From Tetramitus jugosus (lineage: Eukaryota > Heterolobosea > Eutetramitea > Acrasida > Vahlkampfiidae): DNA of 64,000 nt. The stretch spans positions 62,001 to 126,000 of the forward strand of contig OW569347.1 of assembly GCA_937625935.1 (NCBI GenBank). The letters run 5' to 3'. Of the stretch, positions 41,239-46,210 are shown in pieces; position 1 is the stretch's first letter; each line of letters begins with the position of its first letter. The notes under the pieces are model-generated. The model saw only the letters and a program-made list of their open reading frames with translations. It was not told the DNA's origin and searched no databases. The position numbers and the translations under genes were made by a program.

Positions 41239-41970
41239 TTACTTGTTGTTCATGTTGATTGAAAATGTTCCATTGCTCTCGTCTTTCTGCATCTTGAAAT
41301 TGTCCAAACTGAGCCCAATCTTGCCCAACAATGAATTACCCAAATCTTTCAACTGGGACAGCATTTGATCCATCTCCTGTTTTCTCTTTTGTTCCAACAG
41401 TTCCTGCAATCGCTTGTATTCAGTCTGAGCCAATTGACTTTCCGCATTCGTCTCAACCAACAACTTTGCATCCGAGTGAGCTTCTTCAATGCGACCCAAC
41501 GACTCATACGCTTGCATCCTTCGAAACAGTGCCTTACTGTAGTGAGGAATGAGAGAGAGTGCAGTAGAGGCTTCATCGATGGCTCTATTGTAGGCACCGG
41601 TGAGAACAAAGCATGCTGCCAGGTTCGACCGTACCATGCACTCAATTTCTCTACACTGCTTATCATTTTCGTCCAATTCTTCTTCTTCCTCTCTTGTTTC
41701 TTTCACTTGTTCTTCTCCATTGTTGTCTTCACTCGATTGTTTCTCATTCAAAGTAGTATCATTATTCTTATGATCATCATCATCATCGGTATTATTGACA
41801 TTCGATAGTAGTGCATCTTCACTTTGTTCGGGATCAGATAATTGACAGAATGGAAGAGCTTCAAAATAGAATTGGATGGCACCTTCGTAATCCTTCCGTT
41901 TAAAACATTCATTTCCTTTTTCTTTGAGAGTGGTTGCTTGTTGTGGATCGATTGCTTGAATGATTGTCAT
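41239..41970 (-). CDS. TTC1: TPR protein TTC1-like co-chaperone
   Basis: 243 aa, intronless. TPR 1 ('LKEKGNECFKRKDYEGAIQFYFEAL') begins near residue 15; an acidic Asp/Asn/Glu insertion (about 45-105) separates it from TPRs 2 and 3 ('RSNLAACFVLTGAYNRAIDEA', 'KALFRRMQAYESLGRIEEA'). The C terminus 'QLKDLGNSLLGKIGLSLDNF...NGTFSINM' is the TTC1 signature block. TTC1 proteins bind Hsp70/Hsp90 C termini and small GTPases. A Fanzor transposon begins 88 bp upstream of its ATG, so the promoter is either very short or partly inside the element. Confidence 0.88.
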   Translation of the reverse strand: MTIIQAIDPQQATTLKEKGNECFKRKDYEGAIQFYFEALPFCQLSDPEQSEDALLSNVNNTDDDDDHKNNDTTLNEKQSSEDNNGEEQVKETREEEEELDENDKQCREIECMVRSNLAACFVLTGAYNRAIDEASTALSLIPHYSKALFRRMQAYESLGRIEEAHSDAKLLVETNAESQLAQTEYKRLQELLEQKRKQEMDQMLSQLKDLGNSLLGKIGLSLDNFKMQKDESNGTFSINMNNK

Positions 41971-42058: not shown

Positions 42059-42076
42059 TTTAAGGTGGCGGTCTAC
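42059..42076 (+). repeat. Left terminal inverted repeat
   Basis: 18 bp, exact inverse of 44714-44731. The adjacent left flank (...gaaatg) is where a target-adjacent motif for the nuclease would be expected, by analogy with TnpB elements. Confidence 0.92.
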
Positions 42077-42718
42077 CAACTCCTCGTATAAATAGGGCTC
42101 CTCGTATAAAATGATTTTTGTTTGAGAAAAAAGAAGCAAGATGTGGGTCGATCAAAAAACATCAGAATCCATACACAAGAGTTAATCATCCACAATACTG
42201 TGAATTCTCGGTTACAAGCAACACTTTCGTGCTTTGTGATTTCTCTGCGGCGGAGGTTCGGGCTTCTTTATTTGGGCTAGTTGACAGGAACATTGAATCT
42301 CTGGAGAATACAAAAACACACTTGGATGATGAGTCATCCACACGTTGTCATTAAACAAGTTCTGAGTCAAAGATGCAATACTTGGTAGAGTTTCATATTG
42401 GAGTCTCCTCCAGTAGATGATTTCGGTTGTTGTGTGTATTGGTTCAGAGGATGGACGATGGACGTTTTCTTTCAAGACGCGAGATTGAACCACCACCCAA
42501 GAAGAAATAAAGCATTTGCCAAACGAGTAACGTCATCTTTCTGTTGTCTAAATCTCAGTTTCCTCTAAGCTGCGGAATTGGTGCAGTTGTAAAAATTTCC
42601 GTTGAGACTGTCTTTACAACGGCAACGGCCATCTTCCTCGGTTTAAAAAGCGCTGTCTTTTTCGCTGTTTGATTCAACTCACACAACAAATACACCACAC
42701 AACAAATACAAAAACATT
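42077..42718 (+). promoter_or_regulatory. Left non-coding part of the Fanzor element
   Basis: 642 bp. It holds a direct repeat CTCCTCGTATA (42080-42090 and 42098-42108, 18 bp apart) next to the left end, an inverted repeat TGGATGA/TCATCCA (42323-42329, 42334-42340), and near 42630-42718 a probable promoter/leader with a CA-rich stretch before the ATG. Small open frames (for example 42118-42354) have no recognisable similarity. Subterminal repeats are often transposase-binding sites; that is inference. Confidence 0.5.
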
Positions 42719-44641
42719 ATGCCACGAGGCGTGCCTAAGGACGGCAAGAGAAAGAGAAAGAGAGAGACTGTCAAAAAGGATGAATACTCATCACATTACG
42801 TGGTCAAGGTCGGTCTGAAGTCTCTATTGTTGCATCATCCAACTCTTTTACCAATCATACAAACTCAAGCTCTGGAGATTACAAGGATAGCTCTTCGACT
42901 CACAAGATTTATAAACATATTTGTTTTGAGGCACTTGGAGAACAATTGTGATATCCCTCTCTTGAATCAAGGATTTATTCAACGAATCGGTTCAGTGTTG
43001 TTTGGACGCAAGTCGAAGACAAGAGACGATAATGTCAACCTCATCAACGGGTCTGTCAACATGGATGACGTAACAATCAAGCTAAGGAAGATTTATGAGA
43101 AGTTTTCCAAATCCATCAATTACGTTGCCAAGTCTCTCAATGTCAATATTTCTAACATGCTCAAGTTCACATTGGAACAAAGACTGAGAAAGTATTTGAG
43201 AGTGAGGATGAATCAATTGCACAATGACCAATCAATCCCAAGGTCTGAATACAGAAGAGTCATAGAATACATCATCAGAAAGTTGACATTCGCCACTCCA
43301 GTTTATGATTTTGTCAAACTGCCTCCAAAAGAGTTGATAGAGACTATTCCTGTGTTGATCCGAGAGGTTCGAACACTTGTTGGTGCTAAAACTGACGAAG
43401 TGATTGATGAATCGTTTGTGAACAACAACACCAACAACATGCTGAAGTTTTACTGGCATGCTCAACAGTTTCTGATTGGCAATGATACGAAATCATTTGC
43501 ATTGTTACCCTTGTCCCACTTCAAATGTAGATGCATGGAGATTGGTATAACGGAACTGACAGACATGCTCCAACAGAAGAAGAAACCAGGAGTACAAAAG
43601 AAGGGTAATGTACAAGTTATTGAACCCATTGAATTGAAATACAATCTCAAGTGTTTGAATATCGGAACAAAGAAGATTCAAATCGACTCTATCAGAACTG
43701 ACGGTATTCAAGCCTCAGTTGTTCTCAGACATCAACTCGTTGGCAATCACAAGAACAATAAGGCAAAGGAATCCAAGAAAGAAGCAAAGAAGAGAAAGAA
43801 AGAAACAAGTATGAACGAAGGTGCTGAATATTTGGTTGGGATTGACCCGGGTATTGTTACGTTGGTGAGTTGTGCAGATTCAGATGGCAAGAAGTGGGAG
43901 TTTTCTAACAAAACATATAGACATCTGTCCCACCATTCAAAAAACTCCAAGCGATTGTTGAAATACAAAGCAGAATGGAACGAAATGAATGAGAAGAACT
44001 TGGATGAACTCCATAACTCAATCAAACAGGCCGGTGTACCAACAAGTGGTCTGTTCCTTGAACACATCAATTCTGTAATGAAAGTCGAGGATGATTTGTT
44101 GAATTTTTATTGCACCCCAAAGGTGAAGAGACTGAATTGGGATAGCTATATAATGAGAGATAAGACGATTGCCAATGTTATGAATGACTTTCGAAAGAGA
44201 GCAAATGGAAGAACCATGTTAATTGGGATGGGCAATGCTGGTTTTGGTCATTGTTACAAAGGACATGCTCCAACACCAAAAGGAAAGCTATTGAAAAAGT
44301 TGAATGAGCACTTCAAAGTGAAAATGATCGACGAGTTCATGACAAGTCAGAAATGTCATCATTGCCATTCTCACATGAAGCCAGTCAAGCATAAGAGAAT
44401 AGACAAGAATGGAACGTTGAATGTCTCTGTCGTCCGAGGAGTTAAACAGTGTGCAACCACTAAATGTTTAGTGACTCACAACAGAGACATCAATGCGGCC
44501 AAGAACATGCTCCATCTACTGAGAACAGAAATGGATGGACAGTCACGTCCCGATGCCTTCAAGAGGAAGAAAAAGGTCGCAAAAGAATTAATCAAAATGG
44601 TGGAACACCTCCAAGGCTCACTCCATCAAGCTGCTATGTAA
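42719..44641 (+). CDS. Fanzor: eukaryotic TnpB-like RNA-guided DNA endonuclease
   Basis: 640 aa, intronless. Fanzors are eukaryotic relatives of IS200/IS605 TnpB and Cas12 and cut DNA guided by an RNA encoded at the element's end. Visible: an N-terminal basic nuclear-localisation-like cluster (GKRKRKRE); a helical recognition region to about 360; RuvC-I 'YLVGIDPGIVTLVS' with D376; RuvC-II 'MLIGMGNAGFG', where the usual Glu position is Gly (about residue 503-505); then 'IDEFMTSQKC' with E539, the relocated glutamate known from Fanzors; a zinc ribbon C546-x2-C549 and C578-x4-C583; and RuvC-III 'HNRDINAAKNM' with D590. All three acidic residues are present, so it could be active. The codon choice looks like that of its neighbours. 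Fanzors have been characterised from Naegleria, which suits the host. Confidence 0.93.
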   Translation: MPRGVPKDGKRKRKRETVKKDEYSSHYVVKVGLKSLLLHHPTLLPIIQTQALEITRIALRLTRFINIFVLRHLENNCDIPLLNQGFIQRIGSVLFGRKSKTRDDNVNLINGSVNMDDVTIKLRKIYEKFSKSINYVAKSLNVNISNMLKFTLEQRLRKYLRVRMNQLHNDQSIPRSEYRRVIEYIIRKLTFATPVYDFVKLPPKELIETIPVLIREVRTLVGAKTDEVIDESFVNNNTNNMLKFYWHAQQFLIGNDTKSFALLPLSHFKCRCMEIGITELTDMLQQKKKPGVQKKGNVQVIEPIELKYNLKCLNIGTKKIQIDSIRTDGIQASVVLRHQLVGNHKNNKAKESKKEAKKRKKETSMNEGAEYLVGIDPGIVTLVSCADSDGKKWEFSNKTYRHLSHHSKNSKRLLKYKAEWNEMNEKNLDELHNSIKQAGVPTSGLFLEHINSVMKVEDDLLNFYCTPKVKRLNWDSYIMRDKTIANVMNDFRKRANGRTMLIGMGNAGFGHCYKGHAPTPKGKLLKKLNEHFKVKMIDEFMTSQKCHHCHSHMKPVKHKRIDKNGTLNVSVVRGVKQCATTKCLVTHNRDINAAKNMLHLLRTEMDGQSRPDAFKRKKKVAKELIKMVEHLQGSLHQAAM

Positions 44642-44692
44642 ATCCCGATTATGTAGGAGCGTTAAGGTGTCTTATCGGGAAACCATAATGTT

Positions 44693-44698
44693 TTTATT
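44693..44698 (-). terminator. AATAAA for AVEN located inside the transposon
   Basis: On the minus strand the loop side of stem 2 reads AATAAA, 43-48 bp past the AVEN stop. It is the nearest polyadenylation hexamer I see for AVEN. Confidence 0.4.
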
Positions 44699-44713
44699 AT
44701 GGCTTGATCGACA

Positions 44714-44731
44714 GTAGACCGCCACCTTAAA
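44714..44731 (-). repeat. Right terminal inverted repeat
   Basis: 18 bp, exact inverse of 42059-42076. It ends 9 bp before the AVEN stop codon, which reads on the opposite strand. Confidence 0.92.
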
Positions 44732-44740
44732 GTTCATTGC

Positions 44741-46210
44741 TTAGATGAGACTGTCTAACCAGTCATCCAAGTTATCATCACTCTTTTTTGGTGTGACATT
44801 TGTTGCTGTGCTTGTTTTAGTTGGTACAGCCGATATTGTTGGTGGAGACTTGGTGGTGTTCACTTGTGCTGTTCTGGAGCCTTGATTCTGCACAGCAGCA
44901 ACAGAGGTACCTTTTGAATCTCCCAACAGATTATCAATGAAATCTAAGTCATCTTGTTCCTGTTTGTTATTATTCCTAATGTCAGATCTGTGATGTGGTG
45001 GTACAGTAGTCAAGTTTACAGATGAGTCAATCTGATTGAAAAAGTCGTCATCAGCATCATCGTTCCTATGAACGGTCACTCTGTCCTGTTGTTTTGTGAC
45101 GCCTGTCGATATTGTGTTTGGTGCTGTGGTTCTTTGTGCACTGACTGGTGTTTCTTTCTGTTGAGATTGAACGACAGTTGGTGGTTGATGAGCTTCTTTG
45201 GTCACTGTCGTCGACGTTGCTGCTTCAACTTGCTTATCATTGCTCTCATTTTCATCATCACTCTCTGCTAATTCTTCTTCTGAGATGTCGTCCAAATCGT
45301 ATTCGTCGTCATCTTCATCTTGTTCCTCTAGTTCCTGTTCCTTTTCACTCAATTGTTGCTGCTCAACTTGTTGTTGTTGATATTTACTATTGAGATCAAT
45401 GGATGAGATAGGAACAGATGCTGGCTGTTGATGCTCATTGCACAAGTGAGCCAACGATACACTACTCACAGTCACAAACCTTCCATTGTCACTCGATTGA
45501 TCATGCTTCTTCTTGTCCGTTTCTCCACCACCAACAATTGATGATGAATGTACCTTCATAATAGAACTCAACACACAATCATCTTGCTCTGCAAACAAAT
45601 TCAATCTCTGTTGAACAGGCAACAACTTTAACTCGTTTGCCAATTGATTCGTATTCAAATTAAACAAATCATCCGTATCAGCATTCACATTCGCAGCATC
45701 CGTATCCAATTCCCACTCTTTTTCCCATGGTTTCCTGTGATAGGAACTCGCACCACTCAAATCATCCAACAATACTTGCAAGTACCGTGCTCTCTCATCC
45801 TTGACACCAAATTTTGTCATGAGTAATTCATTATTTTCCTCTTCATCATTATCACTTTCATCTGCGTCCTGATAACGATATTCATTACTCTGAATCGGGC
45901 GATGACCAAATGCACTCTTCTCCACGTTATTGACATCAACAGTATCAACAGCATCAACAGCATTTGCATCACGATTCTGTTTGAGAATAAAAGATGGAGT
46001 GAAACGAAAGCCTCTGGAACCTCCACCTCCAACACCACCACCAACACCTCCACTACTGCTACTGCCACTCATAGCAAAGTGCTTATCACCAGCACCACGA
46101 TGTTTTTGATGCTTCTTGTTTTTAGTGTAGCTCTTGGGAGGTTTCGTATTCTTTTTTTTCGTTGATGATGCTGTTGCATTGGCACTACTCTTTGTCGTTG
46201 TGGAACTCAT
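44741..46210 (-). CDS. AVEN: AVEN-like protein
   Basis: 489 aa from the ATG at 46210; the frame is open further up but only to a codon inside the neighbour's coding region. Animal Aven is an RGG-rich, membrane- and RNA-associated regulator of apoptosis and translation. Matches here: a 'LLDDLSGASSYHRKPWEKEWELD' region like Aven's FSxLLSSAGDS...EKEW segment, then 'LANELKLLPVQQRLNLFAE' like its 'LQELPLCLRLNVAAE', 'DDLDFIDNLLGD', and the C-terminal D-x-L-D-D-W-L-D-S-L-I box that closes Aven proteins. The N terminus is Lys/Gly-rich (residues 1-75), the centre Gln/acidic. A caspase-related role should not be assumed in a protist. Confidence 0.72.
   Translation of the reverse strand: MSSTTTKSSANATASSTKKKNTKPPKSYTKNKKHQKHRGAGDKHFAMSGSSSSGGVGGGVGGGGSRGFRFTPSFILKQNRDANAVDAVDTVDVNNVEKSAFGHRPIQSNEYRYQDADESDNDEEENNELLMTKFGVKDERARYLQVLLDDLSGASSYHRKPWEKEWELDTDAANVNADTDDLFNLNTNQLANELKLLPVQQRLNLFAEQDDCVLSSIMKVHSSSIVGGGETDKKKHDQSSDNGRFVTVSSVSLAHLCNEHQQPASVPISSIDLNSKYQQQQVEQQQLSEKEQELEEQDEDDDEYDLDDISEEELAESDDENESNDKQVEAATSTTVTKEAHQPPTVVQSQQKETPVSAQRTTAPNTISTGVTKQQDRVTVHRNDDADDDFFNQIDSSVNLTTVPPHHRSDIRNNNKQEQDDLDFIDNLLGDSKGTSVAAVQNQGSRTAQVNTTKSPPTISAVPTKTSTATNVTPKKSDDNLDDWLDSLI

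What the first reader, a model, noticed from the sequence alone, without database searches (positions are those of the whole stretch)
42059..44731. A complete-looking Fanzor transposon in an amoeboflagellate intergenic gap
Seen: perfect 18-bp terminal inverted repeats, TTAA at both ends, one 640-aa gene with RuvC-I Asp, relocated Glu, zinc ribbon and RuvC-III Asp all intact. Known: Fanzors are eukaryotic TnpB relatives that cut DNA under RNA guidance, and Naegleria has them. Inference: this copy may still be active. The terminal repeats and TTAA suggest mobilisation by a cut-and-paste transposase elsewhere in the genome (piggyBac-like or Tc1/mariner-like), making it a passenger nuclease element.
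Basis: partly seen in the sequence, partly recalled or inferred. Interest (0 to 1): 0.85.

Follow-up and report, generated by a model that had tools for sequence, protein, structure and literature searches.

The report
Fanzor transposon with homing-like repair scars
This is an intact, multi-copy eukaryotic jumping element that carries an RNA-guided DNA-cutting enzyme (Fanzor), and some broken copies of it bear small duplications of the kind expected if the enzyme cuts empty sites so that the element is copied back in.

Summary
Window 42060-44730 is a complete Fanzor1 element: 13-bp perfect inverted repeats, TTAA at both ends, and a 640-aa ORF whose D376/E539/D590 align with SpuFz1 D383/E541/D606. 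It is one of a family (61 matched stretches). A related copy has a 98% identical empty site with one TTAA. 17 of 29 loci examined keep a full-length ORF, under purifying selection (omega 0.09-0.31).

The new point is in the broken copies. Of 17 copies that keep the right end but lack a recognised left end, 5 repeat TTAA plus the next 6-22 nt of their own right flank at, or in one case 6 nt from, the left break; 0 of 272 mismatched flank pairs score as high. Those nucleotides are the predicted guide of the right-end RNA. This fits Fanzor cutting the empty site about 20 nt past TTAA, with copy-back repair stopping early. A published Chlamydomonas Fanzor family shows similar scars, explained there as one-ended transposition.

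No transposase was found; the PF13843 (piggyBac-type) elements whose ends could be read have other ends. The RNA, the cleavage and the homing step are inferred, not shown; 12 of the 17 lack such a repeat.

The parts
42060..44730 (+). Complete Fanzor1 element including TTAA at both ends (2,671 bp)
42060..42063 (.). Left TTAA target-site duplication
   Evidence: Outer base varies among copies; single TTAA at the empty site of a related copy
42064..42076 (+). Left terminal inverted repeat GGTGGCGGTCTAC
42719..44641 (+). Fanzor1 ORF, 640 aa; D376, E539, D590 (RuvC), C546/C549/C578/C583 (zinc ribbon), TDG 327-329
44630..44730 (+). Predicted guide-RNA (fRNA) scaffold overlapping the stop codon and ending in TIR+TTAA; 5' boundary not determined, no RNA data
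   Evidence: Consensus fold of 10 of 29 distinct right ends, 29 pairs; fold of this copy with 15 nt of flank, z = -1.96
44662..44668 (+). Internal UUAAGGU predicted to pair with the terminal ACCUUAA (TIR end + TTAA)
   Evidence: the four TTAA pairs kept in 10 of 10 sequences, 8-10 of 10 over the seven pairs
44714..44726 (-). Right terminal inverted repeat
44727..44730 (.). Right TTAA; inferred TAM once the element is absent
   Evidence: TAM role inferred from GtFz1 (TTAAN, Saito 2023)
44731..44750 (+). Right flank = inferred guide of this copy (runs over the stop codon of the neighbouring ORF)
   Evidence: Inference from Fanzor1 RNAs that extend about 15 nt past the TSD (Yoon 2023)
41239..41970 (-). 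Host ORF on the left (243 aa); the element lies upstream of its start
44741..46210 (-). Host ORF on the right (489 aa); the element lies just past its stop codon

Best explanation
The element is a Fanzor1 transposon that inserts at TTAA through a transposase encoded elsewhere (not found). Its right end is inferred to be transcribed into a guide RNA whose scaffold ends in the TIR plus TTAA and whose guide is the adjoining host sequence. Fanzor with this RNA would recognise TTAA (as TAM) followed by that host sequence, which exists only where the element is missing: on a sister chromatid, on a homologue, or after excision. A cut about 20 nt past TTAA lets the right-hand DNA end invade the element-bearing sister and copy the element back. 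When copying stops early and the end is joined to the left side of the break, it leaves a 5'-truncated element flanked by a repeat of TTAA plus up to about 20 nt of guide. Shown here: an intact family, the TTAA target, an empty site for one related copy, purifying selection on the ORF, and the guide-length repeats in 5 of 17 truncated copies. Predicted only: TIR+TTAA as part of an RNA stem. Inferred: the RNA, the cleavage and the copy-back.
For: (1) 5 of 17 right-end-only copies repeat TTAA + 6-9 (L024), 8-11 (L038), 12 (L025), 18-20 with 2 mismatches (L051) or 21-22 nt with a 1-nt indel (L065) of their own right flank; in four the repeat ends exactly at the left break, in L025 6 nt of filler follow. 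The highest of 272 cross-pairings scores 5 against 8-14 for these five (Fisher 3.8e-7). (2) The longest repeat is 21-22 nt; the scan allowed up to 36 nt. SpuFz1 cuts after nt 16/17 and 20/21 past its TAM. (3) Of the 34 right ends scanned, L024, L038 and L051 stand out (9-11 exact nt past TTAA); the other 31 reach at most 5 (L025's left part was fetched later). (4) By end-pattern searches, right-end-only copies outnumber left-end-only ones 17 to 2 (p = 7e-4; 15 to 2 gives p = 0.002), and the two left-end-only copies (L031, L034) show no mirrored repeat. (5) GtFz1 has TAM TTAAN. Insect-virus Fanzor1 RNAs are predicted to contain TIR+TSD in the scaffold and extend about 15 nt beyond, as the fold here also predicts. 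(6) omega is 0.15-0.31 in 16 of the 18 pairs with a defined ratio and lower in two (0.138, 0.088), dS up to 1.78. (7) Chlamydomonas CRe-1/2/3 Fanzor1 copies are 5'-truncated with repeats of about 7-19 bp next to TTTT or T-rich tetranucleotides, while a Fanzor-less Helitron with similar ends has repeats in 1 of 200 copies.
Against: 12 of 17 right-end-only copies lack a repeat of 6 nt or more (L016 and L029 have TTAA + 1 nt within 10 nt of the break; L050 shares only an 8-nt word, part of it element sequence). No cleavage, RNA or protein was measured. Structure prediction failed (pLDDT 40). No other strain was available to show that a longer element once sat at a truncated site, and no empty paralogue of the five scarred sites was among the candidates scored. 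Repeats of 6-22 bp with 5' truncation also resemble retroposition, and reverse transcriptases are common here (73 matches). The 17-to-2 count leans on end patterns and a right-end similarity search; no equal left-end search was run, left ends of the long subtype already differ by 2 bases from the pattern, and left-module pieces without ends (L041, L044, L045) were not counted. The RNA fold is only moderately stable against shuffles (z -1.96) and its covariation term is slightly unfavourable (+0.48), though 6 of 29 pairs have a sequence with both sides changed. A few Chlamydomonas repeats are much longer (44-443 bp), which a cut near 20 nt does not explain.
Confidence: 0.6

Rival explanations
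1. The Fanzor element is a passive passenger moved by an unseen TTAA transposase. The truncated copies are ordinary gap-repair or deletion products after excision, and the nuclease plays no part.
For: Complete copies have simple TTAA duplications. Internally deleted copies with both ends exist (L014, L026). 12 of 17 truncated copies have no guide-length repeat.
Against: Excision leaves ends at TTAA, so gap repair should not place 6-22 nt of the right flank to the left of the fragment as in 5 of 17 copies. The ORF is under purifying selection. Right-end-only copies exceed left-end-only ones (with the search bias told above).
Confidence: 0.17
2. Retroposition: element transcripts are reverse-transcribed into nicked TTAA sites by a LINE-type enzyme, giving 5'-truncated copies with target duplications.
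For: 5' truncation with variable 6-22 bp duplications; 73 reverse-transcriptase matches in the genome.
Against: In the scarred copies the 3' end is exactly the DNA element end at TTAA, with no poly(A) and no second flank between element and repeat, whereas a Fanzor guide RNA would carry its donor's flank; but copies were chosen by having this end. L024 starts at element base 45, within a TATAAA-like motif, so it may include untranscribed DNA (promoter role inferred).
Confidence: 0.11
3. One-ended transposition by the unseen transposase, the reading given by Bao and Jurka for Chlamydomonas CRe-1/2/3.
For: Right ends are kept and left ends lost; a similar pattern is in print.
Against: A TTAA transposase should give 4-bp duplications, not TTAA plus 6-22 nt. 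In Chlamydomonas a Fanzor-less Helitron with similar ends nearly lacks the scars (1 of 200), though the authors note that its shorter length could be the cause.
Confidence: 0.09

Closest known systems
SpuFz1 elements of Spizellomyces punctatus (Saito et al. 2023, PMC10432273; outline, sections 5, 7, 11 and found passages read)
   Same: Fanzor1 ORF alone between short inverted repeats, many copies, right-end RNA including the repeat, no transposase found within the repeats, the same three catalytic residues
   Different: 30-nt repeats and CATA TAM there, with RNA and cleavage shown. Here a 13-bp TIR, TTAA target, and truncated copies with guide-length repeats, which I did not see in the parts read.
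GtFz1 of Guillardia theta (PMC10432273 as above; passages of PMC11423790)
   Same: TAM TTAAN; guide RNA overlapping the 3' end of the ORF
   Different: The Saito discussion says GtFz1 loci seem to lack inverted repeats; here repeats and TTAA duplications are clear.
Chlamydomonas CRe-1/2/3 Fanzor1 families (Bao and Jurka 2013, PMC3627910; section 8 and found passages read)
   Same: 5'-truncated, 3' ends kept, repeats of about 7-19 bp adjoining the insertion motif, occasional short extra sequence at the left junction
   Different: Helitron-type ends and TTTT there; TIR and TTAA here. Some of their repeats are 44-443 bp. Their interpretation is one-ended Helitron transposition.
Insect-virus Fanzor1 elements such as SfAV (Yoon et al. 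2023, PMC10711439; section 27 and found passages read)
   Same: Non-autonomous TIR element with a Fanzor1 alone; TIR and TSD predicted to fold into the RNA scaffold; 4-bp TTAN TSD and 13-bp TIR (from PMC3627910)
   Different: Two copies in a virus; RNA was sequenced there, only predicted here.
TnpB of IS200/IS605 as a retention nuclease (as described in found passages of PMC11870625)
   Same: TAM equals the insertion motif, guide equals the flank, cut at the empty site followed by recombination
   Different: Bacterial, moved by TnpA; described there as characterised, inferred here from scars.
piggyBac and other TTAA transposons (recalled)
   Same: TTAA target duplication, short TIRs
   Different: No transposase gene with these ends found; PF13843 elements in this genome whose ends were read have other ends and AT-rich targets.

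Membership tests
Fanzor1 | RuvC acidic triad, relocated Glu, C4 zinc ribbon and RD motif in the C-terminal half | tested here: met
   D376, E539, D590 align to SpuFz1 D383, E541, D606 (SpuFz1 residues); C546/C549/C578/C583 invariant in 6 sequences; Pfam PF07282 above cut-off
Fanzor1 | TDG motif in the WED domain (Yoon 2023) | tested here: met
   IRTDGIQ at 325-331, aligned with SpuFz1 ITTDGAS (motif)
Fanzor1 | Closer to Fanzor1 than to Fanzor2 or TnpB | tested here: inconclusive
   SpuFz1 is the only PDB relative with a profile, E 7e-22; no tree with Fanzor2 was built
Fanzor1 | Fanzor fold | tested here: inconclusive
   AlphaFold2 model with 6 sequences has pLDDT 40; not used
Fanzor1 | RNA-guided DNA cleavage | not testable with these tools
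   needs purified RNP
piggyBac superfamily | TTAA target-site duplication with precise ends | tested here: met
   39 of 39 end matches begin with TTAA; single TTAA at one empty site
piggyBac superfamily | DDE_Tnp_1_7 (PF13843) transposase encoded in an element with the same ends | tested here: not met
   15 PF13843 matches in the genome; two families whose ends could be read have AATT/AAAT- and ATAT-flanked ends; the intact gene at C34:197870 shows no TIR in the 3.8 kb held; the remaining hits were not resolved
Tc1/mariner | TA duplication without a wider target requirement | tested here: inconclusive
   39 of 39 end matches and 22 of 24 begin with TTAA, wider than TA; but TA duplicated inside an obligatory TTAA gives the same sequence, and no mariner transposase search was run

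The most novel reading that the evidence does not exclude
The genome records Fanzor-directed homing in a eukaryote: the nuclease cuts TTAA-plus-guide at empty sites and the element is copied back, with 5'-truncated copies carrying guide-length repeats as aborted events. The similar scars in Chlamydomonas CRe-1/2/3, next to a different insertion motif and in a different element class, would then be Fanzor scars too, making this a general genomic signature from which the TAM and cut distance of uncharacterised Fanzors can be read.
Probability: 0.55. Interest if true: 0.88.

Novelty: new variant of a known kind. Interest (0 to 1): 0.72.

Why it matters
Saito 2023 calls the biological role of Fanzors unknown. 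If the scars are what they seem, they are in-genome evidence that a Fanzor does what TnpB is described as doing for bacterial insertion sequences: cut the empty site so that the element is restored. They would also give a way, from assemblies alone, to infer the TAM and approximate cut distance of uncharacterised Fanzors and to test the idea in any genome with a Fanzor family.

Tried and rejected
piggyBac mobiliser: PF13843 hits have other ends where readable. Autonomous partner with exact TTAAGGTGGC ends: the 12 inverted pairs within 5 kb are all Fanzor loci. Viral relatives: none in IMG/VR with two peptide patterns. Structure: poor model, so no fold search. Rfam: no match. I first took TTAAGGTTTTTCTGCGG upstream of L029 as another left end; paralogous sequences at C16:454287 and C38:80530 run across its joined flanks (80% and 72%), so it is probably host DNA, and L029 counts as truncated with only TTAA + 1 nt repeated. 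A similar presumed left end of L033 was not checked, and L043 has a damaged left end; both were left out of the 17. Empty paralogues for the five scarred copies: none among the 40 of 61 candidates scored. L066 (about 30 nt of right end) may be shared with a related host sequence at C52:91054, and L035's left flank is itself duplicated at C16:300341; both are kept in the 17 as negatives. A third type B left-end match (C15:15258, 2 mismatches) was read and judged chance.
Full report
What is there. The window lies at C4:62001-126000 of an unnamed 26.35-Mb, 56-contig genome. At 42060-44730 there is a 2,671-bp element: TTAA, a 13-bp TIR (GGTGGCGGTCTAC), a 640-aa ORF at 42719-44641, the inverted TIR and TTAA. 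The ends are not chance.

The protein. Pfam finds PF07282 above its cut-off. The only convincing PDB relative is Spizellomyces punctatus Fanzor1 (E 5e-14 by sequence; 7e-22 with a six-sequence profile). The alignment puts D376, E539 and D590 on SpuFz1 D383, E541 and D606, metal-coordinating residues named by Saito 2023. A word-based search of 5.8 billion proteins gave five relatives at E<=1e-5 (7,990 candidates scored), predicted proteins from public sources without organism names: four are 60-76% identical over 94-99% of the query and one is 98% identical over 56%. None was found in viral contigs with two peptide patterns.

The family. The element has 61 matched stretches in the genome, a lower bound. 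Two kinds of end occur. Type A is TTAAGGTGGC; type B is TTAAGGATGTAGTTCG, which also bounds a diverged Fanzor at C32:2808-4989 whose frame is broken into two overlapping pieces. Types A and B share the Fanzor gene module and TTAA. I tested 30 rows (29 distinct loci, L036 and C6l being one) chosen for holding much of the gene: 17 of 29 keep an ORF of 628-642 aa with the standard C-terminus. Of 19 pairs compared, 18 have a defined omega: 16 lie at 0.15-0.31, two lower (0.138 and 0.088); dS ranges up to 1.78 and is zero in one pair. The enzyme is therefore maintained by selection across copies.

Target. Base before the left TTAA: A or T in 16 of 16, against 86 of 149 TTAA sites in the window (p 6e-4). 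Base after the right TTAA: G in 16 of 38 against 23 of 149 (p 7e-4), C in 1 of 38 against 29 of 149 (p 0.011). TTAA itself was required when these ends were collected (one mutated right end, L027, fell out). The preference differs between the two ends (p 0.002), as it might if something reads the site in the element's orientation; a TAM would, but this is only a hint. Joining the flanks of 14 complete copies and searching the genome gave one clean empty site: for C32, a paralogous sequence on C8 continues for 214 bp at 98% with a single TTAA. A diverged paralogue on C3 also crosses that junction with gaps, and a local repeat beside the C22 copy crosses its junction without a gap but has other bases in place of TTAA. 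No empty site was seen for the window copy.

Guide RNA. The last 100-odd nt of ten right ends (of 29 distinct ones) fold into a common structure of 29 pairs in which an internal UUAAGGU pairs with the terminal ACCUUAA, that is, TIR end plus TTAA. Six pairs have a sequence with both sides changed, but the overall covariation term is slightly unfavourable, and this copy folds only moderately better than shuffles (z -1.96): plausible, not proven. Yoon 2023 sequenced Fanzor1 RNAs of insect viruses that extend about 15 nt past the TSD, and predicts TIR and TSD to be part of their scaffold. By analogy the guide of the window copy starts at 44731.

The scars. I collected 17 copies that keep the right end but lack a recognised left end, against 2 that keep only the left end. 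In five of the 17 the host sequence left of the break repeats TTAA and the following bases of the right flank: L024 6 nt (9 with microhomology), L038 8 (11), L025 12 followed by 6 nt of filler, L051 18 (20) with 2 mismatches, L065 21-22 with a 1-nt indel. Matching each left side with the right flanks of the other 16 copies gave no score above 5 in 272 pairings, against 8-14 for these five. Deletion of a complete insertion, or gap repair after excision at TTAA, should not put right-flank sequence on the left. A break inside an empty site some 6-22 nt past TTAA, repaired by copying from the element-bearing sister and then joined early, would. The two longest repeats agree with the cut distances published for SpuFz1 (nt 16/17 and 20/21); shorter ones fit trimming before joining. 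The excess of kept right ends fits as well, since the right-hand DNA end matches the sister at once while the left-hand end carries a non-matching guide tail; but the search for right ends was more thorough than that for left ends, so the size of the excess is uncertain. Of the other 12, L016 and L029 have TTAA plus one matching base within 10 nt of the break, L050 an 8-nt word, and the rest nothing notable.

Comparison. Bao and Jurka 2013 described a similar combination in Chlamydomonas CRe-1/2/3: frequent 5' truncation, intact 3' ends, repeats of about 7-19 bp next to TTTT or T-rich tetranucleotides, some extra sequence at the left junction, and near-absence of repeats in a Fanzor-less Helitron with similar ends (1 of 200). 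They suggested one-ended transposition and wrote that it is unclear whether the difference is due to the Fanzor protein or to element length. A few of their repeats are much longer (44-443 bp), which cutting near 20 nt does not explain. My paper searches for Fanzor with Naegleria, piggyBac, homing, truncated plus target site duplication, and one-ended/peel/transposon retention/donor site, and the listing of 40 of 82 Fanzor papers, showed none that proposes this explanation, judged by titles and the starts of abstracts and by the passages I opened; the library is open-access only.

Limits. No transposase, RNA or cleavage was shown. Twelve of 17 truncated copies lack a repeat of 6 nt or more. 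Reverse transcriptases are frequent here (73 matches), so retroposition remains possible, though the exact DNA ends and L024's start in a TATA-like motif argue against it.

Noticed in passing
L021:704-1348; C22:83272-83910 (host): Many longer family members carry a captured fragment (215-aa open frame) of a VPS35 gene; of 26 matched stretches 25 lie at Fanzor loci and one, 98% identical in protein and in a 450-aa open frame, looks like the host gene (Pfam Vps35 E 2e-44).
   Followed up: partly
L046:1009-1815 (-): A weakly chromodomain-like open frame (PF00385 E 0.025 on the short piece, below cut-off) lies in the same 5' region of long elements; possibly another captured gene.
   Followed up: partly
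C18:38326-40258 and its C39 copy; the C18:150 kb/C30:266 kb pair: PF13843-bearing elements whose ends, read by eye, are flanked by 4-bp AT-rich sites (AATT/AAAT; ATAT), unusual for piggyBac-type transposases, which by my recall use TTAA.
   Followed up: partly
C34:197870-199828: A single intact 653-aa PF13843 gene without recognisable TIRs in the 3.8 kb held, perhaps domesticated.
   Followed up: partly
L078 (C8, around 628363) versus C32: The empty-site paralogue matches the C32 flank for 26 nt past TTAA and then lacks about 147 bp that C32 has; those 26 nt match the predicted C32 guide perfectly.
   Followed up: no
L035, L007: Mosaic copies: L035 has a diverged protein but a C-terminal end identical to the window copy, and L007 has type B ends with a type A-like gene, pointing to recombination or conversion among copies.
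   Followed up: no
genome-wide: 73 reverse-transcriptase (PF00078) matches, many in long open frames, in a small genome.
   Followed up: no
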